64,000 nucleotides of DNA from Macrocystis pyrifera (Eukaryota > Sar > Phaeophyceae > Laminariales > Laminariaceae), in contig JASSKH010000044.1 of NCBI GenBank assembly GCA_031763025.1, forward strand, positions 1,488,001 to 1,552,000. Reading direction: 5' to 3'. Position numbers and translations under genes: made by a program. Under the pieces are notes generated by a model that did not search any database, had not been told where the DNA came from, and was given only the letters and a program-made list of their open reading frames with translations. Every line of letters begins with the position of its first letter. The stretch's first letter is position 1. Positions 34,658 through 62,861 of this stretch are shown piece by piece.

Positions 34658-36937
34658 CTAGTACCTTGCTACCCTATCTGCGGTCTCTCTGCTACTCTCT
34701 TCTACCGCGGTTTCCCTTCTACTCCTCCTGTTCCCCCCCCTGCCCCCATACACTTGTACGGTGTTCCTTCTACCCCTCCTGCTGTTACCCCTCCCCCCAT
34801 TCCCTCTAACACTACCCGCAGCGGATGCACGGCGCTGTCTACTCAGCTTTGCCTCAGCCTCGTGGCACCTGCCCATGAACTGTTCAGCTGCTTCGAGGAT
34901 TCCCCGGTACCACTTTCCCGTCTGTTTTGCTGCAGTGGGCCCCAGTGCGGTCCCAACTCCGAAGACTAAGGGGGAGTCTTCCGTTGATCCCTCGGTGGCT
35001 TTAAACACTCCATGGTCCTCAGCAATGACCCTAGGCCAAGTCTTGGGCTGCCCGCCTGGTTTCGGGCTCCCCCACCAGCGATCGTCCCGAACATCAACCG
35101 ACTGGGCAATCGCCCCTCGTGTTGCCGCACCAGAGCGCCCGCAAAGAAGAGTCGCCGTTTACGGATGGTCGTGTCGATACTTTCGCATCGTGTTATCGTG
35201 AGCGCCTTCGCATACGAGAGGGTGGTGTGGTCGGTGCGTAGTCGACGCTGGAAGCCAATGACTCGCAGAAGGACTTCGTGGTGGGCTGATCGAAGCTTGG
35301 CGAAGTGGTCCGCATGGAGGATCCACGTCACGCAACCGTACAGCAAGGTCTCAACCACCTCGGCCTTCAGCATCCGGACTTTCATGCTAAGCGGTGCGTT
35401 CGTCTTATCGTACAGTTCCGGACCATACCGTTTGAGGCATGCCCGCATCAGACGGATTCGTCGCTCGATTTCGAAGGAGAGGTCAGCGTTCTCGTGGATA
35501 ATGCCTCCTAGGTATAAAAACTGGGTCGTCTGTTTATACTTTTGGCCTGCAGCTTCGATCGCGAGCGGTGAGGTGGTAAACGTCTGATCCGGTGTTCGTA
35601 GGAGCATCGTCTCTGTCTTCTTCTCGGATACCGTGAGACCTACTGCTTCGAAGACAGTCACGATGACTGTCATCATTCTTGCAAGGCCTTCCGCCGACTT
35701 CGAGACTATTCCCGCGTCGTCTTCATACAACATGCCCCACACAGCCCTTTGCACGCATGCCAACGGTTCCTCTTTTCCGACAACCCTGTCTTCTTCGAGA
35801 TGAACCAAATCCCTTACGATGCATTCGTCTTTGCTGAGGCGTACCAGCACGATGTGTATCGCAGCGGCGAAGAACACGTTGAACAGTAACGGCGATAGTA
35901 CGCAGCCTTGCCGCAGCCCCTGGGTTACATTGAACCAGTCCGAGTGTTCACCGTCATCCGCACGCACGCGAGCCCGCATGCCTTCGTGAAAATTGCGAAT
36001 GATTGTGAGCATCTTGGTTGGTACACCAAGGCGTGAGTACCTCCCACAACAGTTCTCGGTCGACAGGGTCGTTCGCTTTCTGCAGGTCGATGAAGCACAT
36101 GTACAGGGGGATTTTCTCTGCCGTCCGAGCTCCTGCAACCGGCGCACGACAAACAGCATATCGACTGTTGACCGTGCGGGGCGGAAGCCGCACTGTTCTT
36201 CAGGGAGTATATGCTCGGTCTCGCAGTAGCTGCTTAGACGGGACGCAACGATTTTCAGCAACACCTTGCCTGCGTGAGCAACAAGCGAAATCCCTCTGTA
36301 GTTGTTGCAATCAGTTATCCTTCTTTTTGTGAAGGGTTTTTATGATCGCATATTTCCATTGCTGGGGGACTTCTCCCGTTACCCAAACGTTAACAAGGAT
36401 ACTGTGAAAATACGCACGAAAGCGGGGTGGTCAAGTTTCAGTACTTCGACCAGGAGACCATCTGGTCCAACGGCTTTCCAGTTTGATATACCCTTCACTG
36501 CTTCCGTCATCTCGTCAATGGATGGTTCATATCCAAGGGATAGTTTCAGCGGTCGTGGTGGCACTAGGTCGATGATCGTGGGGTCAAGTTTCAGCGATTT
36601 CGTGTTCAATAGTTTGTGGTAGTGCCCCGCCCATCTTTCACGAATGAATTCGCGCTTGATCCCGCAACAGCGTGCCATCCTCGTCCATGATAAACTGCTC
36701 ACTCCTCGCTTTCGTACCTTGCAACCCGACCGTACTCTTCAGGTGCTTGTAGAACCCTCGTTGATCGGAACTCGCGAGGAATTTCTCGGTTTCAGCGAGG
36801 TACTCTTCAAAATACGCATTGACTCCTGCTGCGATCACTTCCTGCAGATTCGCACAGGCGGATCTCAACTTCTTCCACGCTCTACTATCTCGGGGTAGAC
36901 ACGCAAGAGCTGTCTCGCATCTTCCCTCGCTGTCCAT
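34658..36937 (-). pseudogene. LINE linker and reverse transcriptase, frameshifted
   Basis: The linker (36937-36640: LRSACANLQEVIAAGV, DQRGFYKHLKSTVGLQG) is followed by the RT N-terminus (GISNWKAVGPDGLLVEVLK, 36440). Then come GFRPARSTVDMLFVVRRLQE, VTQGLRQGCVLSPLLFNVFF and the active-site box YEDDAG (about 35732). A thumb/C-terminal part continues to 34966, and a tail in another frame runs to 34658. At least three frame changes (about 36370, 36100 and 35040) make it non-functional. Confidence 0.85.
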
Positions 36938-50181: not shown

Positions 50182-51444
50182 CTATGTCAGGTTCCAGAGC
50201 TCCCCTGCCATTCTGAGGACGTCCCTTGCTTTGGCGTGTCGTCGGTGCGTAGGCCAGTGATCGTCCAAAAGGCTTCTGATCGCTTCTGTTTTTTCACGTG
50301 TCAAGGAGATTCTCATGGTGTGCGAATTTATGGTGAAACCCAGTGCATCAATCTTGGAATCCCAATATGTGCTCTTTTTGGGCGCAAGGATCGGCGTGGC
50401 GCCTTCCTCGCCCGGTCCGAACAAGCGTACGTGATCGGAGGCTAGAGAGCTGAGGCGACTAACGCGGACGAGCCCAAGTCAGAATGCTGCACTTTTATCG
50501 GCAAGTAGTTGTCCACGTATACGGTAACGAAGAAGGGGTCCGACTCCCCCCCCCCCGCGGTTCTCACGAATTCTTGCGTCTGCGGGTACGGTCGTTGGGT
50601 TTCTTTTTTCCCAACGGTCTACCACCTTCACGTGAGCCATCATTTCTGTCACTTCTTGCAGTATCTGGGCCGACACCACCGTGGTGTTACAGTGAGCGTG
50701 TTCGGCGGCTGCCGACATCACACCCCAAAAACCGGGGGACCCTGACCAACCGAACGTCAAACGGAAATCGATGACCACTAATTCCCCTACCGTGTAGCAT
50801 AAATTTTGAGCCTCGTTGGGGTCTATTCTGACGTTGCAAAAAGCATCAGACACGTCAGCCTTGCTCATCAGAATACGCTTGGTTGGGAATTTCTTTCGTA
50901 GGCTGACTAGTTCGGCGAGGAATTTTGGAAGGGCCTCTGCGCACAGGCACGGAGGCACGCTGTCCGAGTCGGTGTCTGCATTCAATCCTCCCTTCTTGTT
51001 GCTGTTCTGCGTCTCGAAGGAGAAATCGTTAATTATCCGAGCCTTGTGTGTGACGACTGCTCCCAGCGGTGACACGCGTAGGTTTGGGATTTCACGGGCG
51101 GCTGCTTTCTTGATCACGAGGCATTTTTGGCGTCTTACGTCTTCACAAAGCTTGTCCCAGATCACTGACATGTGTCCGGCGACGCTGCGGTGATTACCAT
51201 TCTGTAGGGCGCGCTCCAGACCCCGCCTGTGGGGTACCGCCTGCACCGGGACCCCTCTGGTAACTATCGTAATCAGTTTATCAATGGCACAAAAACCTTT
51301 TATTCCACCAAAATACCGCTGTAATTGCGTGGCGTCTACCAGTGGTGCTATGAGAGACCCTCCCAGCGCCCAGGCCACGTCGCCCACGACGCCGCGGTAG
51401 TGTCTCATCAGGTTCGTGCAAATGTCGGCAAGCTTGTACAGCAA
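50182..51444 (-). pseudogene. Reverse transcriptase of the second tyrosine-recombinase element
   Basis: NLRVSPLGAVVTHKARIIND, the catalytic SKADVSDAFCNVRIDP and FGWSGSPGFWGVMSAAAEHA correspond one-to-one with the first element's RT. A frameshift in a C run near 50550 is followed by VTVYVDNYLPI, where the active-site YVDD is YVDN. The thumb part (PKKSTYWDSKIDALGFTI) continues at 50424-50182. Confidence 0.82.
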
Positions 51445-52049
51445 TTCCTGCTTGCGCGTGCATCGAGGTTGTCCTTACCAAGGTTGGTTTTTTCTGTATG
51501 CCGGGTCCGCACCATGCGTTCGGTCTGCGGTCGACGAAGCGACTCTCCATCAGGAAGCCGCGAGCGTGCTGACCCGCTACCTGTCCGCGACTCGACCGGA
51601 TCGAACGTGTGCTTGACTACTCGTGGCCGGCGCAGTTCGCCCTGCCGCGGCTCCGGGGGCCACCGTTTCGATCCTGCCATGTGCATGTGTTCGAGAGCGT
51701 ACGGGTTCTGTTGGCATTCCACGTTTCGTATGAAAGAAATACGGCGCGAACTGTCACTGTTTCGCGGTCCGTACGCGGGTCCGTACGGTGAGCCCGCCTG
51801 AAAGGTGGACTACGGCCCTCTGGCTCCGGCTGCGGCACGTTTGGGAGACCGCTGCCGTACCGACATTCTCTGTCCTTCTGTGTATATGTTTTCGTTCGTG
51901 GTTTCCGGTCTTGTGTTCTGGTGTGTGTTGGTTCGAGGTACACCCCCGGAGCGGTGGGGTATGCCCAGACCCCCCTACCGGCTCCGTCGGAAGGGGATAA
52001 AAGGGGGAACCCCCCCCCCTCGACGCACGAAAAGAATGAAAAGAAAACA
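51445..52049. other. Gag-RT linker of the second tyrosine-recombinase element
   Basis: Arg-rich open frames run on both strands (51281-51801, 51617-51943) without a recognised domain. The segment joins RT to the minisatellite. Confidence 0.45.
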
Positions 52050-52515
52050 ACACAAAAAAGGGGACCCGGCCCTCGGGAACGGATGCCTCAACAAACTGAA
52101 TGAGTCCCCCCGCGATGTCGGCGCTGCCGACGCTCGCGGGCAGAGGAACTCCCACCTAAGGGACCCGACCCCCGTACTCGAGCGGCTGCGGGCCATGAAC
52201 GGTTGACCCATCTGCACGGGAAAAGAGGGAACCTAGCCCTCGGAACCGAAACACACCCAACGCTGACTGCGCCTCGCGCGACCTCGATCCGGCCGACGCT
52301 CGCGGAAGGGGGAACCTAGCCCTGGGGAACCTAGCCCCCGCACTCAAGCAGCTACGAGGTGTGAACTGTTATATCGTCTGACCGGGGAGCGGGAGGGAAC
52401 CCAGCCCTCGGAAAACGAGCGAACCTAGGCTAACGAGTCTCTCGCAGCCTACGCCTAGGGAACCTAGCCCTAGCACTCGAACGGCTGCCGATTGTGAACC
52501 GTTGTCCCGTCTGCA

Positions 52516-52607
<92 letters not shown>

Positions 52608-53560
52608 CCAGCCCTCGGAAACGAAAAACGAACAGAAACAAACAAGCGCAGCGCTGCGTGAGCCTCGCGCGATGTCGGCACTACCGACGCTCGCGGGAGG
52701 GGGAACCTAGCCCAGGGGAACCCAGCCCTCGCACTCCGACAGCTGCAGGATGTGAAACTTTGTTCTGTTAGCAATACGGGGAACCAAGCCCCGGAGAACC
52801 TAACCGGTGTGCGCTGGCGACGGTTATATGAACTTCCGCGGCTCCGTACGGCCGACACGCGCTAAAGAGAGAACCCAGCCCTCGGAACCAAACGCCACAC
52901 ATCTGACAGTGCCGCGCGCGATGCCGGCACGGCCGACGCTCGCGGGAGAGGGAACCTAGCCCTGGGGAACCTAGCCCCCGCACTCAAGCAGCGACGCGGT
53001 GTGAACGGTTGTCTCGTCTGAAAGGGGGGAAGGAGGGAACCCAGCCCTCGGAAAAAAAAGGGGGCCCACGTAGGCTGAATGAGTCTCTCACGACCTAGCT
53101 CTGGGAAAACCGGACCTCGCCCTCGGGCGGCTGCAGTCTGTGAAACTATTGTCCCGTCTAAACGTGGGGGAGGTAGGGAACCAAGCCCTTGGACATGAAC
53201 AGTAACCAGACACCCGAGCTGCATGAGCCTCTCGCCATGTCGGCACCGCCGACACTCGCGGGAGGGGGAACCTAGCCCTGGCACCCAAGCCGCTGCAGGC
53301 AGTGACAACTTTGTTCTGTTGATCAAACGAGGGAACCTAGCCCCGGGGAAACCTAGCCCTTGCATTCGGGAGACGATTTTGTAAACCTTCCGCGGTTCGG
53401 AACGTCGACACGCGCGCGAGCGGGGGGACCGAGCCCCGAGAAGGCCAAGCCCTCGTCCTCGGGCAGCTGTAGATTACGCACGGTTGTCATGTCTAAGAGG
53501 AAAACGAAAAAACCCGGGAGGGGGCCAAGCCCTCGCATTTTGACTGTCGCGCTCTCACTC
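52050..53560. repeat. Diverged GC-rich minisatellite with GAACCTAGCCCT modules
   Basis: An approximate unit of 160-200 bp recurs. It contains (a) GGGGGAACCTAGCCCTGG, (b) CACTCAAGCAGCTACGAGG-like sequence followed by TGTGAAC.GTTGT..CGTCTG, and (c) CGCGATGTCGGCACTACCGACGCTCGCGGGAG with an inner GTCGGC/GCCGAC inverted repeat. Module (c) is visible at about 52112, 52276, 52668, 52918 and 53235. The units differ by many substitutions, so the array is old. It interrupts gag from RT in the surrounding element. Confidence 0.8.
52517..52605 (+). repeat. 89-base uninterrupted G run
   Basis: Directly counted: G from 52517 to 52605, inside one minisatellite unit between CTGCAC and ACCCAGCCCTC. Such a tract would form G-quadruplexes and replicate poorly. 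Its true length may differ from the assembled one. Confidence 0.9.
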
Positions 53561-56282: not shown

Positions 56283-57108
56283 ATAGACGTCTCCCACATC
56301 CCCTGCGGTGGGGCACGACGACAGATTTTTTTATCAGACAGGTGTTATTTTTCCTTTTTCTTTTGATTTTTTTGTAATAATAATAGTTCGTTTGTTTGCT
56401 TTCTTTCACAGAAGAATGTGCATGTCATACGTACCACACGACGTATTGTTGTGGTTGTTGTTGTTGTCCTTACATTATCTCTCAATTGAAGGAGTCGGTG
56501 GTCACACAAAGGTGCTGGAGCCTCAGGAAGATCCGAAAACCCATCAAAAATCAATAATCGGCTGCCTAAAAAATGCACGAGACGAAGAAGGCGCACACAA
56601 GATGAAATCAATGTGCAAACTGAACTCTGAACAACGTGGCCGTGGGTATATCCTCTCAACCACAGCATAGAGTTTCCCCCGTACCCACAACTAACCAACG
56701 TGGCTACTGACTACAGCGGTTGCTGTCTGGAGTGCTGCCTGGACTGAACGAAACGCACGGTAGTCGTGAACACAGAGAGGAACACGCCTGCTGTCTGGGG
56801 TGCTGTCAGAGTGACGACTCGCGGACATTCAGTGAAAAAGAAGCAATCCAACCCAAAACCACCACACAAGTATCAACGATCGCCATCTCTTCCCGGACCG
56901 TCTGGCAAAACGTTTAGCACAGGTGTGATACCACGTCCCTGATAATTGCTGGATCCAGGAGTCATTCCCCATGAAGGGTATACAAGTCGCCAACACTACA
57001 AAAAAGACCAGTGACTTATTAAAATAACAAGTACAAAATACTGCCTCGTGAAAAACAGAATGTGATATGAGTGAAGTACTTATGGGCTATAGATATAGAT
57101 AATAGTAA
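56283..57108. other. Intergenic, nothing recognised
   Basis: A 120-codon plus-strand frame (56308-56670) starting with a hydrophobic stretch has no recognised family; other frames are shorter. Confidence 0.45.
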
Positions 57109-58064
57109 GTTTCGGGAAAGAAAAAGCGCTCAGGGTCAGGGTTTGTCGAAGTCTCGCCGCATGAAAGACGTTGACGCCTATTTTTCCCCAGAGTGGATTC
57201 TTTTTTTCCAGATGCTCAGGGGTACGGGCTGCAAAACAGGGTTTTACCCTGAGCAAATAAGCTGCTCAGGGTAATGGTCATGGCACAGAGCACAGGTAGT
57301 GAAGGATGCCTGTACCGTCACACAAGCAGCCCGGGACTGACACTGACTCGCCGCCATAGCTTAGGGCGACAAGGCGCGCTATCTCCTCGAACCAGTCGTC
57401 GTTTGGTTCGTGATTGTTTGGCGGCGAGGAAGTACAGAGTAGCTTCGGCAATCTCAGCAGGCAAGGAGGTGGAGCATGCATCATATATCTTTAGAAAAAA
57501 CGAAGACATGCGACCTAGCAACCTCACGCCGCGTGACAGTGAGGAGGGCGGTGATGGCGTAGAAGGTACGCGAGGAGGACGACCACTCTCCAAAGCGTTG
57601 GAGCAACCGGGCGCACCACCTCCTCCACCAGTAGGCGTTTGGTTGTGGTGGAGCCACAAGTACTACTGCTGTAATCACAACAGGCGAGGCGAAGTGAGCA
57701 GGAGCAACAGCTCGATAAATAGAAGCACATCACGCTGCACACGAAAACGAAGACACGCAACCTCGAGCTGGGTGGCGGCTTGGAGGACAGCGACGGTGGA
57801 GATCGTGTTATAGTGATGGAGGAGCGGGAGGGGCAGGTCGGGGCGAAAGGTGGTGGAACACGCGGCGGTCGACTGCACGATGCTCGAAGCTTACTGTGAA
57901 AAATCGGGAAGCTTGAACGTAGGTCCACGTCATTTTTATTCCTCCTCCCACCCTGATCATTTTTTTTTACATTTTTTTACAAATCCTGGAAGCACCAACC
58001 ATGAGCACCCACCCTGAGCACCCCACCCTGAGCAAAGTTTTTTTCTTTCTTTTTTTTCCGAAAC
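57109..58064. mobile_element. CTCAGGGT-rich TIR element, copy 2 (956 bp)
   Basis: Collinear with 41777-42738 throughout, with scattered substitutions. The ends are GTTTCGGGAAAGAAAAAGCG at the left and TTTTTTTTCCGAAAC at the right, a clearer terminal inverted repeat than in copy 1. The right end has an extra CACCCTGAG module (CACCCACCCTGAGCACCCCA). No target duplication was resolved. Confidence 0.78.
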
Positions 58065-58576
58065 GCTCCAATGTAGGCTGCAGGTTTGAAGTGTATCAGC
58101 AACACGAGAATAATCCAAAAAGTGGATTAACCCGGCGGATATCTCGTTAGTCGAGAGTAACATTATTTCAGGGATATTCTCTAGGGCGGATAGCCAGTTA
58201 GACGAGAGTAGTGTTCCTTAACGCAGATAGGACCATGAAGTGAGAAGTTCTTATACCAGCAGAAGAACGATCGGTAGCTATAGGAAAGTTCTGTAGGAGT
58301 ACATCAGATAAGAGGAATTTAGGAGAGCTTGTGGCGTGGGGTGGGACGAGTATATCTGGGCGTGGAGTCCCTCCCCCCTACCTCTCACTTCTCTACTAGA
58401 GCACGTCCTCAGCTCTCGCCATCAGCAAGAACATCTAAATCAGAAGAAGCGAAGCACTGCTTCCCAGCTTCCAGAAACACCTGCGTCCCTTACCCGTACC
58501 CTATCTCGGTCCCACTTCACATCTGGCGTCGACGGTAGGACACGAACCTGCGCGTGAAATCACAATGGGTTTCCAA
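58065..58576. other. 5' flank of the gypsy-like element (possible LTR/leader)
   Basis: The segment contains short repeats (CTCGTTAGTCGAGAGTA, AGTTAGACGAGAGTAG). It precedes the NADAR-protease ORF where an LTR and primer-binding site would be expected. No second LTR copy was found in the window, so this is not proven. Confidence 0.4.
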
Positions 58577-58644
58577 TCGTCTTTTCGCTGTGATACCTGT
58601 AGAACATCGAGCACAATGGCGTCACATACAACTGCGCTGAGCAG

Positions 58645-59559
58645 ATGATGATGGCGCGAAAGGCCGCGCTCTTCGGGGACACCACAACTGAGCGCCGCAT
58701 CAAAGCGACCCGCGACCCGGCCGACCAAAAAGCACTTGGGCGAGCCGTTTCAGACTCCGACGAACTGATTTGGGAGCGAGACCGCTACAACATCGTCCTC
58801 AACATCAACTTCTCCAAGTTCCACCGACACCCGGAGCTACGGCGACAGCTAGCGGCAACGTGCGAGAAGCACATCGCCGAGGCCAGCCCACACGACCTCA
58901 TCTGGGGCATAGGCGTCACGGCCGACCATCCGGACGCCAGCGACCCGACGCGTTGGCGTGGTCGGAACCTGCTGGGCAGGATACTAATGGACGTTCGAGA
59001 AAGTCTCGGCGCCTATCGCTCCACCCAACCTCCAATTCCTACCGATCTTCACGACCCGGAACCAACACCCACCTCCACCGACTCAACCCGAGTCTTCCCC
59101 ATCGCCGACAGCATCCAAGAGACAAGCCCGACTCCCCCATGGCAACCACCTACCTCACCTCTTGGGCCACTCCTACCGCCGTCTACCCCCGACGCTTACT
59201 CCAGCAACCACTTCGTCCAAGTGTCCACCATCAACACCGCAGCCCACAGCCACCTCCCTTCCCGCCACCCGCTGATACCAGAACCCGGACCATGCCTTAC
59301 AGGCAGCATCATTACCGTCGACCACTCATCGTTCACGACGAAGGTACTCGTGCACAGCGGCCCCACCGCCACTACGCGCCGCGAGCTCGTGGCACTGCTC
59401 GATACCGGCTCGCCCCAGTCATTTATCACCGCAACCACAATGGAACAAATAAAGGCTTCCCAAGCAACTACCGATGCGTGCGAACGGCATAGTTCCCCCC
59501 GTTCATGGGGAAGTTTCGGCGCTTCAGCCCCCCTCTCCACCTCCGTTTCCATCCACTGA
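58645..59559 (+). CDS. NADAR (YbiA/DUF1768) domain fused to retropepsin
   Basis: The ORF starts inside the NADAR domain. The same frame upstream encodes NGVTYNCAEQ immediately before MMMARKAALFGD. In-frame TAG (58609-58611) and TGA codons about 15 bp apart lie just 5', so the true N-terminus is broken. NADAR hallmarks are LGRAVSDSDELIWERDR (31-47), NFSKFHRHPELRRQL (55-69), EASPHDLIWGIG (79-90) and WRGRNLLGRILMDVRESL (104-121). A Pro/Thr/Ser linker leads to the aspartic protease box LLDTGSPQSFI (251-261). After a TGA the protease continues as ILLGRDSWMRF (to about 59684). NADAR enzymes cleave N-glycosidic bonds of ADP-ribose or ribose derivatives. Their role in a retroelement is unknown. Confidence 0.8.
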   Translation: MMMARKAALFGDTTTERRIKATRDPADQKALGRAVSDSDELIWERDRYNIVLNINFSKFHRHPELRRQLAATCEKHIAEASPHDLIWGIGVTADHPDASDPTRWRGRNLLGRILMDVRESLGAYRSTQPPIPTDLHDPEPTPTSTDSTRVFPIADSIQETSPTPPWQPPTSPLGPLLPPSTPDAYSSNHFVQVSTINTAAHSHLPSRHPLIPEPGPCLTGSIITVDHSSFTTKVLVHSGPTATTRRELVALLDTGSPQSFITATTMEQIKASQATTDACERHSSPRSWGSFGASAPLSTSVSIH

Positions 59560-59743
59560 AGCATCCAGTTTATGCGCCTTCAGACCCCCACCGCTGTCCT
59601 AGCAGTATGGGCCTGCGTAATTCCCGCAGGAATCATGCAGCACCCCATCCTCCTGGGACGAGACAGCTGGATGCGCTTCGAGCAATGCCCGTATACCACG
59701 CTCCAGCAACACCCCACCCCCCCCGCACCATATATTAATAATG

Positions 59744-60260
59744 GGTTGGGTTGGCGTCGGTTGGCAACGACACTGTAAAACATGCCGCTCACTGCGTGAG
59801 CTAGACATCCTGGGTACTTTTTTTTTTTTTGGCGGTCACCCACAGCTGATCGTCGAGTTGGATCATTTGTGCAAGGCAAAGAACCTTTACTCTGCACAAG
59901 GGAATTGATCGTATCACGTAGTGTTCAAGGTAAGGCACCCAAGAGGCAATTACATAGTGCTCCCATTGCTGTCTCTGGAAGTGGCTACACCGGAAATTAA
60001 CTAACTCATTGAAGCTGCCATCCATATGCAAGTCCGCCTCACAAGCGGTTCTTAGTAGGATGCAGCCCACCCTTCATGCGACTCGCCGGACACCTCACGG
60101 CGCTTCGCGCTTGGTGCAAGCAATGTCTGCCTGGTCGGTGAAAACCCGACATGCTCCGTCCCGGCATTGTAGGGATGCAAGGGTCTATGGTCATACGACT
60201 ACGGCCATGCATAAGATCGAGTACATCTCTCCTATCGAGTACACCCCCCCCCCCCCCCCC
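59744..60260 (-). repeat. Dispersed repeat R1, copy 5, inserted in the gypsy-like element
   Basis: The copy is collinear with copy 3 (8519-9060) from GGTTGGGTTGGCGTC to the poly-C tail at 60243-60260. The left flank is C-rich (CACCCCACCCCCCCC), so the insertion may have targeted or duplicated a C tract. The interruption of an otherwise continuous retroelement shows that R1 was mobile. Confidence 0.85.
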
Positions 60261-60295
60261 ACCAACCTCCCCGGCGAACCCGCGGTGAGCTCTCC

Positions 60296-60892
60296 TTGAG
60301 TCACCATGACCCCAACGGAGCCTCAGCATTCATTCCCGACGATCGTTTATCTGACGATGTCTACCACCTCCTATTCGCCGACAACAAAGCTATTTCGTTT
60401 TCCTCTACCTCCAAGCTCGTCGAGGTCAACCTGGTGCGTCAGTCAGGCGCTCCAGCATTTACCGGGAACTATATGGTGAACATGCTCCCCCGCGAGAGCC
60501 CTTTTTCCGACACGGCGATTTTCGTCTCCGACGGGTATCAAACGGTCCCATTATCTGGATCTACCGATCTCGAGCCGGGCGACCTCCTCGGAACCTCCTG
60601 CTCCCCACTGGTACAGGTACCACTTACCGCCCTTGGACGCCCTTCCTTGGCCCCTCCCCACCCCCCTGCGATTCCGGACGTACATGCCCTCCACGACAAC
60701 ATCCCCGTGGCCGACCAGAGCCCATCGACAGACGACCCCCCCACCAGATCAAAGGCCCCGTGCCCACAGCTCCTTGCACGCCCCAACGCCGATCAACGGG
60801 AAAGCTTCCTCGACCTCTGGCAACTCCTGCCGTTCCACCTACGCAACGTCAACTTCGACCTTCACGTGTCTGGATGGAGACCCCATCGGTGA
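60296..60892 (+). pseudogene. Protease-RT spacer of gypsy-like element
   Basis: This frame-2 stretch (DPNGASAFIPDDRLSDDVYH, FVSDGYQTVPLSGSTDLEPG) resembles the beta-rich region between retropepsin and RT in gypsy elements. It ends where the reading continues in frame 1 as VINNLGDVLCEFRDVFSA. A frameshift near 60870 separates it from RT. Confidence 0.6.
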
Positions 60893-62300
60893 TCAACAAC
60901 CTGGGCGACGTCCTCTGCGAATTCCGGGACGTCTTCTCCGCCTCGAAAACCGACTTAGGCACGTGCTCGCTAATGCCGTTCGAGATCACCGTACCCCCGG
61001 ACAGCGCACCGGTCACTTCCCGCCCCTACAGGATCAACCCCATCCTCGCCAAGAAGGCCGACGCCGTATTAGACCAGTAACTGGCCGCCGGCCTGATCCA
61101 GCATTCCACGTCACCATGCTCCAGCCTTATGGTCGCCATCCCCCAAAAGGATGGAGGTGTCCGCATGACAATCAACTACAAGAAGCTCAAGGCCATCAGC
61201 TCCCTCGGACAACTCCCCATCCCCCGCGTCGACGAAGTCCTCGACTCCTTGGGCAAAGGTCGCATATTTTCTCTCTTCAACCTGGTCTCCTCGTTCCACC
61301 AAGTCACCATCGACGAGGACACCATCCCTTTGACAGCGTTTTGCACCCCCAACCGGCTATTCGAGTGGCTTGTCATGCCGCAAGCCAGCAACGCCTCCCC
61401 CAGCTGGTTCGTCAAGGTCATCAACGAGGCCATCAAAGGCCTGGAACGCGTAGCCGCGTACCTCGACGACATCATCGTCTTCGACCCCGACCCCATCGCG
61501 CACGTCCACAATATCAGAGCCCTCTTCGGACGCCTCCGGAAGCACCGCTTCAAAATGTTCCCCGCTAAGGCCAAAATCCTGAGACACAATATTCCCGCTG
61601 GCGGTTACAGCCCCAACTCCGACAAGGTCGCCGCCCTCACCAGAATGCCCATGCCGACCGATAAGAACCAAGCGCGCTCGCTCCTTGGAGGCATCAACTA
61701 CTAGGGCAAGTTCCTGTCGAACCTTTCCCGACGCCTGCGCCCCATAAACGCCCTACTCAAGTAAGGCGCCACGTTCGACTTCACGTCCGCCATGGAAACC
61801 ACCATACGCGCCATCCTACAAGAACTTGCCGAACCGCCTATCCTCGTCTACCCCGACTGGGACGCCGTCGCCGACAACTCCCGCCCCTTCAGCCTCTACT
61901 GCGACGCTAGCATCGACGGCTTCGGAGCGACCCTTGAGCAAGAACCCGACGGCTCAGTCTGCCCCAGCCTCTCCATCAGCCGCGCCACCCTGGACTCAGA
62001 ACGTTCATGGACACCCCTCGACCTCGAGGCCGGGCGCATTGTGTGGGCCATCAAACGTCTCCGCGGACATCTATGATCCACCCGCTTCCAGATCTACTCG
62101 GACCACAAGGCACTCGAGAACAACGCCAAAGTCGGAGAACATAACGCCCGTGTCCGGCGCTGGCTGGAGGTCCTTTAGGCGTACACCTACACACTGGAGT
62201 ACCGGAAGGGCACTGCCAACGGCAACGCCGACTTCCTTTCCTGGCTCCCCCAACCAGCCACCGACGCCGACCGCACCGGATGCAACCGCCTCACTGGCCC
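60893..62300 (+). pseudogene. Reverse transcriptase and RNase H of gypsy-like element
   Basis: RT motifs are VTSRPYRINPILAKKADAVL, MVAIPQKDGGVRMTINYKKL, IFSLFNLVSSFHQVTI, FEWLVMPQASNASPSWF and the active-site YLDDIIVF. RNase H shows FSLYCDASIDGFGATLEQ, LDLEAGRIVWAIKRLRGH, YSDHKALE and TANGNADFLSWLP. The first catalytic Asp position of RT is Asn (FNLVSSFHQ). Stops lie at about 61078, 61702, 61762, 62074 and 62177, so it cannot be translated whole. Confidence 0.85.
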
Positions 62301-62861
62301 CAACACCGTCAGCATCTACCTCATCCGCCCCTGCGGCTTCGCGCGGATCGACCCGCCCGCCCCGGGTATCGGCTTGGGTGGGCTCTTACCCCCCCATCCC
62401 AACCATCCTGGCGCTCCCCTTCACCGACGACGATTTCCGCGATTTCCGCCTACTGGGACCACATGGAGCGCCCCAACCTCTTCCCGGCACCCCCCACCTT
62501 CGTTGGGCCTATTGTGACCCACGCTTCCACCACCGGGCAGCTTGCTGGCACCGAGAATACCGCCGTGAACACCGGAGCTCCTGCGGGCTCGGCTTCCAGG
62601 CCGTCCGCCATCTCTGCGCCGTCCACCATTGGCGCCACGACACCAGCCCTTCTTGGTCTGATATCTTCTCGGACCTGCCATCGCGTCGCCGCTGCCGCGG
62701 AAACCCCTCGGCCCACTGCCGATTACCGGTTAGGACGCCGATCACCACCCGTCGTACGCAAACGATCTACACCCACCTACCGTGCGACCACACCAATGTA
62801 TCATGTCTGTTATGCATGTCCCCCCTTGGTCCCCCCCTTGATCGCCTGCTAGCAGGTCCAT
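62301..62861 (+). other. Region after RNase H, frames open but unrecognised
   Basis: Two overlapping plus-strand frames stay open to about 62900 (Pro/Arg-rich; SAYWDHMERPNLFPAPPTFV in one). They may be the linker towards an integrase, but no zinc-binding or DDE motif is seen. Confidence 0.4.

What the first reader, a model, noticed from the sequence alone, without database searches (positions are those of the whole stretch)
58577..59690. NADAR (ADP-ribose glycosidase-type) domain fused to a retroelement protease
A single ORF carries clear NADAR/YbiA hallmarks (MMARKAALFGD, KFHRHPELRRQL, EASPHDLIWGIG, GRNLLGRILMDVR) and, about 130 residues on, a retropepsin DTGS box of a gypsy-like element. 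NADAR proteins act on N-glycosidic bonds, and some remove ADP-ribose from guanine in DNA. A retroelement carrying one could counter host ADP-ribosylation of its nucleic acid or use it in priming or processing. This role is inference.
Basis: partly seen in the sequence, partly recalled or inferred. Interest (0 to 1): 0.92.

Follow-up and report, generated by a model that had tools for sequence, protein, structure and literature searches.

The report
NADAR enzyme domain inside gypsy retrotransposon
A family of jumping genes in what is almost certainly the giant kelp genome carries, inside its main protein, a domain of an enzyme family known to remove ADP-ribose from nucleic acids; the window holds a decayed copy, and the same arrangement was published for another brown alga in 2025, but what the domain is for is still unknown.

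Summary
One frame (58603-59559) encodes a NADAR domain (Pfam E 9.4e-43), followed about 130 residues on by a retropepsin DTGS box. It is not a host gene beside a transposon: three capped searches of the same genome list 246 distinct NADAR places, and NADAR precedes the protease in each of four subfamilies looked at. Sister copies go on to RT, RNase H and integrase and have LTRs. The window copy is a relic with deletions, insertions and stops.

It is not new in kind: a 2025 Ectocarpus paper (PMC12477816) reports a Gypsy lineage with YbiA-type NADAR at the N-terminus of Pol. Added here: a second host (assembly figures match giant kelp), copy number, constraint, catalytic residues, one clade not rejected, and an excess of window-type copies on the candidate female sex chromosome. 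The role (cleaning ADP-ribosylated element RNA or cDNA) is inference.

The parts
57061..57111 (+). 5' piece of the 5' LTR
   Evidence: blastn to sister-copy LTRs, 57059-57111; end TGTGAT read
57112..58092 (.). about 1 kb without match to the sister LTRs, taken as an insertion in the LTR (inference)
   Evidence: gap between matched LTR pieces
58093..58521 (+). 3' piece of the 5' LTR
   Evidence: blastn 58093-58502; end at ATCACA-type terminus read (here TTCACA)
58524..58546 (+). primer-binding-site-like stretch just after the LTR; the first 10 bases after the LTR (TCTGGCGTCG) are shared with a sister copy; pairing to a tRNA not tested
58579..58579 (+). point where homology to the internal part of sister copies resumes; the region between PBS and this point (gag-like part, spacer, start of NADAR) is missing here
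58603..59007 (+). NADAR domain, N-terminally truncated (residues 1-135 of the ORF; Glu13, Lys20, Glu93 in place)
   Evidence: PF08719 E 9.4e-43; residue mapping to 8bau
59008..59316 (+). variable, proline/serine/threonine-rich linker
   Evidence: highest tree length of the three parts
59317..59703 (+). retropepsin-like protease region; DTGS 59401-59412, LLGRDSW 59650-59670; interrupted by TGA at 59557-59559
   Evidence: limits carried over from the model of a sister copy
59731..60246 (.). about 0.5 kb absent from sister copies (insertion in this copy)
   Evidence: blastn gap in 3 of 3 sister copies compared
60247..61080 (+). protease-RT spacer and start of the RT region, broken frames
   Evidence: blastn to sister copies; ORFs
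61081..61704 (+). reverse transcriptase
   Evidence: PF00078 E 3.8e-19
61765..62076 (+). RNase H
   Evidence: PF17919 E 6.3e-15, PF17917 E 1.2e-10
62077..62750 (+). rest of the RNase H/tether region; homology to sister copies ends at 62750 and the integrase part is missing in the window

Best explanation
The window holds a decayed copy of a Ty3/gypsy-type LTR retrotransposon whose Pol normally reads spacer-NADAR-linker-protease-RT-RNase H-integrase (shown in sister copies). NADAR is a standing part of the element, present in the four subfamilies looked at, under purifying selection, and with the residues of a working YbiA-class hydrolase (shown). Inferred: it is made as part of the polyprotein, freed by the neighbouring protease, carried in the virus-like particle, and there removes ADP-ribose from guanine bases of the element's RNA or cDNA, so that copying is not blocked.
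Against: No expression, processing or activity was tested. R93 of the Phytophthora enzyme is not kept (Arg in 33 of 129 fusions, mostly Cys), though stand-alone NADARs vary there too. Five of 60 window-type copies have Gly at the catalytic Glu. dN/dS among young copies is about 0.68. E. coli C7 NADAR does not act on uracil-ADP-ribose and NADARs do not act on phosphate-end adducts, so the substrate must be guanine-like or small molecules. No guanine-ADP-ribose is reported here from brown algae.
Confidence: 0.5

Rival explanations
1. Counter-defence: brown algae ADP-ribosylate element nucleic acid as a restriction, and the element's NADAR undoes it, as NADAR does for DarT1 in bacteria.
For: NADARs are antitoxins to a guanine ADP-ribosylating toxin (PMC11543638, passages); NADARs sit in polyproteins of nidoviruses and other RNA viruses and are read there as countering host ADP-ribosylation (PMC9503650, passages; fold matches). 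Selection keeps the active site.
Against: No such host modification is known to me in brown algae and none was searched for; omega is uniform and low, with no test for positive selection done.
Confidence: 0.15
2. Metabolite or RNA-repair role: NADAR clears low-molecular ADP-ribose derivatives or N-glycosides in or near the particle, not adducts on nucleic acid.
For: E. coli YbiA acts on riboflavin intermediates and NADARs are linked to RNA repair (PMC9503650 and PMC11543638, passages).
Against: Fusion in Pol places the enzyme with nucleic acid; no direct evidence either way.
Confidence: 0.2
3. Binding or structural module: NADAR has become a nucleic-acid or ADP-ribose binding part of Pol, and catalysis is not needed.
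For: Its place beside the particle proteins; R93 is not kept.
Against: Catalytic Glu and Lys kept in 95-97% of fusions with a letter there.
Confidence: 0.13
4. Host NADAR gene fragment lying by chance next to a transposon in this window.
For: The window copy alone is broken and could be read so.
Against: Dispersed copies, four subfamilies and database relatives with the same order.
Confidence: 0.01

Closest known systems
NADAR-bearing Gypsy lineage of Ectocarpus (e.g. Gypsy-12_Ec32), PMC12477816 (section 5 part 1 and passages read)
   Same: [quoted passage not shown] the paper too suggests processing of RNA intermediates.
   Different: Different host (figures match giant kelp). The C-terminal chromodomain named for Gypsy-12_Ec32 is only hinted at here (E 0.07-0.08, under cut-off). 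Sequences could not be compared.
Tx1 LINEs of Crassostrea gigas with NADAR in ORF1 (PMC12477816, section 5 part 1)
   Same: Retrotransposon carrying a NADAR.
   Different: Non-LTR element, animal host, other place in the element; not compared here.
NADAR in polyproteins of nidoviruses and other RNA viruses (yellow head virus, gill-associated virus; PMC9503650 passages)
   Same: NADAR inside a large polyprotein of a genome copied through RNA; fold match (E 1e-5 to 2e-6).
   Different: RNA viruses of animals; 18-22% identity; other neighbours.
DarT1-NADAR toxin-antitoxin systems (PMC11543638, passages)
   Same: Same fold; likely same chemistry (guanine-ADP-ribose hydrolysis).
   Different: The antitoxin class has Asp at the last-strand site; here it is Glu. 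No DarT-like domain among the 19 window ORFs scanned.
Phytophthora nicotianae NADAR (8bau)
   Different: Stand-alone chain of 189 residues; R93 mostly Cys in the fusions.

Membership tests
NADAR superfamily (PF08719) | Profile match over the curated cut-off | tested here: met
   146.7 bits against 35.1 in the window ORF; 150 of 150 scored genome places over the cut-off
NADAR superfamily (PF08719) | YbiA fold | tested here: met
   [not shown]
YbiA-class NADAR | Glu (not Asp or His) at the last-strand catalytic site, with the other Glu and the Lys | tested here: met
   E93, E13, K20 in the window; 137 of 144, 82 of 85, 124 of 128 in fusions
YbiA-class NADAR | ADP-ribosyl-guanine hydrolase activity | not testable with these tools
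   needs the enzyme assay
Ty3/gypsy LTR retrotransposon | Protease, RT, RNase H, then integrase, in that order | tested here: met
   RT and RNase H in the window; in 3 of 3 sister copies integrase H2C2 zinc domain over its cut-off downstream, core rve E 6e-6 to 3e-5 but under its cut-off; protease without a Pfam hit over cut-off but with the fold
Ty3/gypsy LTR retrotransposon | LTRs with TG...CA ends and target-site duplication | tested here: met
   one sister copy: about 450 bp, TGTGAT...ATCACA, 1 mismatch, GCAG on both flanks; window has one LTR in two pieces
Ty3/gypsy LTR retrotransposon | Gag ORF and tRNA primer-binding site | tested here: inconclusive
   gag-like ORF upstream in one copy without a Pfam match; PBS-like stretch not compared with tRNAs
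Ty3/gypsy LTR retrotransposon | RT groups with Ty3/gypsy in a tree | not tested
   no reference set was used
[quoted passage not shown]
   description in PMC12477816
Ectocarpus NADAR Gypsy lineage | Chromodomain after the integrase | tested here: inconclusive
   PF00385 E 0.069 and 0.08 in 2 of 6 pieces (copies L091, L090), under cut-off
Ectocarpus NADAR Gypsy lineage | Sequence or tree relation to Gypsy-12_Ec32 | not testable with these tools
   the published TE library is not held
DarT1-associated NADAR antitoxin | Asp at the last-strand catalytic site | tested here: not met
   Glu in the window and in 137 of 144 fusions; no Asp seen among the rest (Lys, Gln, Gly)

The most novel reading that the evidence does not exclude
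Brown algae restrict retroelements by ADP-ribosylating guanine in their RNA or cDNA, and this lineage has carried its own de-ADP-ribosylase inside Pol since before its subfamilies parted: a eukaryotic retroelement counterpart of phage and toxin-antitoxin NADARs.
Probability: 0.15. Interest if true: 0.88.

Novelty: new member of a known kind. Interest (0 to 1): 0.45.

Why it matters
It shows in a second brown alga that a retroelement lineage has held on to a NADAR under purifying selection about equal to that on its own protease, with the catalytic residues kept. That makes a clear question testable: which ADP-ribose adduct does a reverse-transcribing element need to remove? PMC11125620 (passages) states that the physiological roles of NADARs in eukaryotes remain unclear, and an element with hundreds of copies and natural sequence variety is a good source of enzymes to test.

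Tried and rejected
Host gene fragment beside a transposon: rejected by the copies.

NADAR-less sister group: 60 of 150 RT places had a listed NADAR upstream, and 0 of 49 in the RT band of 72-82% identity. This looked like a branch without NADAR. Three of those 49 were fetched and 3 of 3 carried NADAR before protease (in two of the three the two parts lie in different frames). The NADAR lists are capped. The other 87 unlisted RT places were not looked at, so a NADAR-less branch is not excluded.

dN/dS among recent copies (NADAR 0.68, linker 0.62, protease 0.78) does not by itself show constraint; subfamily-level codon models were used. Three of 17 rows (L064, L065, L066) were dropped between and because their linker or protease part jumped in the trees, most likely from merged matches in different frames. 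The omega = 1 runs failed; those worked, with kappa also fixed at 2.

Two separate captures of NADAR: the free tree needs two changes, but a tree with all element NADARs held together scored 5.2 log units better, p-AU 0.644. One origin is not rejected; it is not proven.

Saccharina japonica as host: a draft of 537.64 Mb exists but with 29,670 contigs, and the newer assembly is 516 Mb (PMC11836290 passages); the giant kelp figures fit better.

Other dead ends: one scan of viral contigs with P0002 gave no relative. No tRNA or Rfam match in the window. The repeat finder gave no LTR pair in the window or in four sister stretches; one pair was found by blastn on flank pieces, while the second copy tried gave none with the flanks fetched. 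The model of the truncated window ORF was poor in the protease half and was not used. In VIA only chains that Foldseek ranks highest were compared.

Papers: 10 searches. Of what was listed only PMC12477816 was seen to join NADAR/YbiA with retrotransposons; the other listed papers were not opened, apart from those cited. Opened, each in passages only: PMC9503650, PMC11125620, PMC11543638, PMC11833690, PMC13036486, PMC11836290, PMC10498591; PMC12477816 in section 5 part 1 and passages.

Full report
1. Observation. The frame 58603-59559 on the + strand encodes 318 residues. Pfam NADAR (PF08719) matches residues 3-135 with E 9.4e-43, profile positions 31-162 of 163, so about 30 N-terminal positions are missing. 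A DTGS box starts at residue 267. A TGA ends the frame at 59557-59559, but homology to P0001 goes on past it to the LLGRDSW motif. RT and RNase H follow at 61081-61704 and 61765-62076.

2. The copy in the window is a relic. Compared with three sister copies from the same genome it reads: 5' LTR in two pieces (57061-57111 and 58093-58521) around about 1 kb of other sequence; a primer-binding-site-like stretch; a deletion that takes everything up to the first part of NADAR; NADAR; linker; protease with a stop; a 0.5-kb insertion (59731-60246); RT and RNase H with stops between the frames; end of homology at 62750, before the integrase. The matched pieces are about 87-93% identical to the sister copies.

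3. The family. A search of the same genome with the window ORF scored 125 places of 5139 first-look candidates. A search with the distant relative P0004 scored 80 of 1941, none of them overlapping the first 125. The Pfam model scored 150 of 1264, all over its cut-off, 41 of them new. The union is 246 distinct places. All three lists are capped, so this is a lower bound; the 41 new places were not checked for a protease. Of 198 sequences examined (177 database proteins, the window ORF, 20 genome copies), 144 hold both NADAR and protease: 123 of the 177, the window and all 20 copies. In all 144 the NADAR comes first, with 50-95 residues (median 53) between the matched stretches. A profile search of the large protein collection gave 727 matches, of which the best 120 were listed. 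Four database ORFs chosen because they carried RT all show NADAR before RT, one of them with RT just under its cut-off. ORFs downstream in 3 of 3 sister copies hold the integrase zinc domain over its cut-off and the core domain under it. A chromodomain is only hinted at. A gag-like ORF (my reading) without a Pfam match lies upstream in one copy. One copy has an LTR pair of about 450 bp with one mismatch and GCAG on both flanks, so at least one insertion of this family is recent. That copy appears to lack most of the gag-like region.

4. Subfamilies. The genome holds at least four by NADAR sequence: the window type, the L070 type, the L069 type, and the type seen at RT places 72-82% identical to the window RT. 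NADARs of different subfamilies are 48-59% identical, proteases 57-67%, and RTs 76-79% for the three pairs with data. The fourth type had no listed NADAR (0 of 49) but carried one in 3 of 3 copies fetched. So no branch without NADAR came to light, but 87 RT places remain unexamined.

6. Origin. In a tree of 17 element and 38 stand-alone NADARs the element domains fall in two groups, but a tree with all of them together is 5.2 log units better and not rejected. One capture before the subfamilies parted is the simplest reading.

7. Host. The genome has 537,376,219 bases in 223 contigs; the longest contig seen has 26.5 Mb. The published giant kelp assembly (Macrocystis pyrifera, haploid female) has 537 Mb, 223 contigs and a largest contig of 26 Mb (PMC10498591, passages). 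Contig numbers fit a name sort of scaffold_1 to scaffold_35, with lengths falling in order for 25 of 25 contigs checked. So the window is almost certainly from giant kelp; this is inference from assembly figures. C200 is then scaffold 2, whose second half that paper reports to hold four female sex markers. Window-type copies are over-represented there: 36 of 125 against 5.1 expected, against 7 of 80 (3.3 expected) for the P0004 list. Both lists hold only the best-scoring places, which may bias the counts.

8. How it most likely works. Shown: a NADAR with its active-site residues is part of Pol, next to the protease, and is kept by selection. From the literature: NADARs remove ADP-ribose from guanine in DNA and are the only hydrolase family among those tested that reverses guanosine ADP-ribosylation in RNA; they do not act on phosphate-end adducts, and the NADARs tested did not act on uracil adducts. 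Inferred: the protease frees NADAR in the particle, where it clears ADP-ribose from element RNA or cDNA. Whether the adducts are a host defence, an RNA-repair by-product or incidental is open. NADARs in polyproteins of nidoviruses and other RNA viruses suggest that genomes copied through RNA have gained from this domain more than once.

9. Known or new. PMC12477816 (section 5 part 1 and passages; [quoted passage not shown] The present case is a member of that kind in another brown alga. The catalytic-residue tally, the codon test, the clade test and the distribution in giant kelp were not in the parts of that paper that I read; its supplements were not available. That kelp elements of this kind are not in print rests only on the searches in an open-access library, whose listings I read but mostly did not open.

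10. Scores. Interest 0.45: well supported and with a real open question, but the main finding is published. The boldest reading, counter-defence against nucleic-acid ADP-ribosylation in brown algae, has probability 0.15.

Noticed in passing
genome contig C200 (22.0 Mb), outside the window: Window-type NADAR copies are about seven-fold over-represented on C200 (36 of 125 against 5.1 expected), which fits scaffold 2 of the giant kelp assembly, the candidate female sex chromosome; P0004-list copies far less (7 of 80).
   Followed up: partly
L094, L095, L090 (C200:8347000-8359300): A copy with near-identical LTRs (1 mismatch in about 450 bp) appears to lack most of the gag-like region just after the primer-binding site, so gag-less copies may have moved recently with help in trans (inference).
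   Followed up: partly
subfamilies: L070, L085, L090, L104-L106: NADAR differs between subfamilies far more (48-59% identity) than RT (76-79%), though omega of NADAR equals that of the protease.
   Followed up: partly
window 34966-36339 (-): A second retroelement: ORF of 457 aa with RVT_1, E 2.2e-21.
   Followed up: no
window 50479-51474 (-): ORF of 331 aa without a Pfam match that by eye recalls a tyrosine-recombinase (DIRS/Ngaro-type) element's RT region; name recalled, not tested.
   Followed up: no
window about 52430-52640: Long simple-repeat tract that reads as poly-Gly on + and poly-Pro on -.
   Followed up: no
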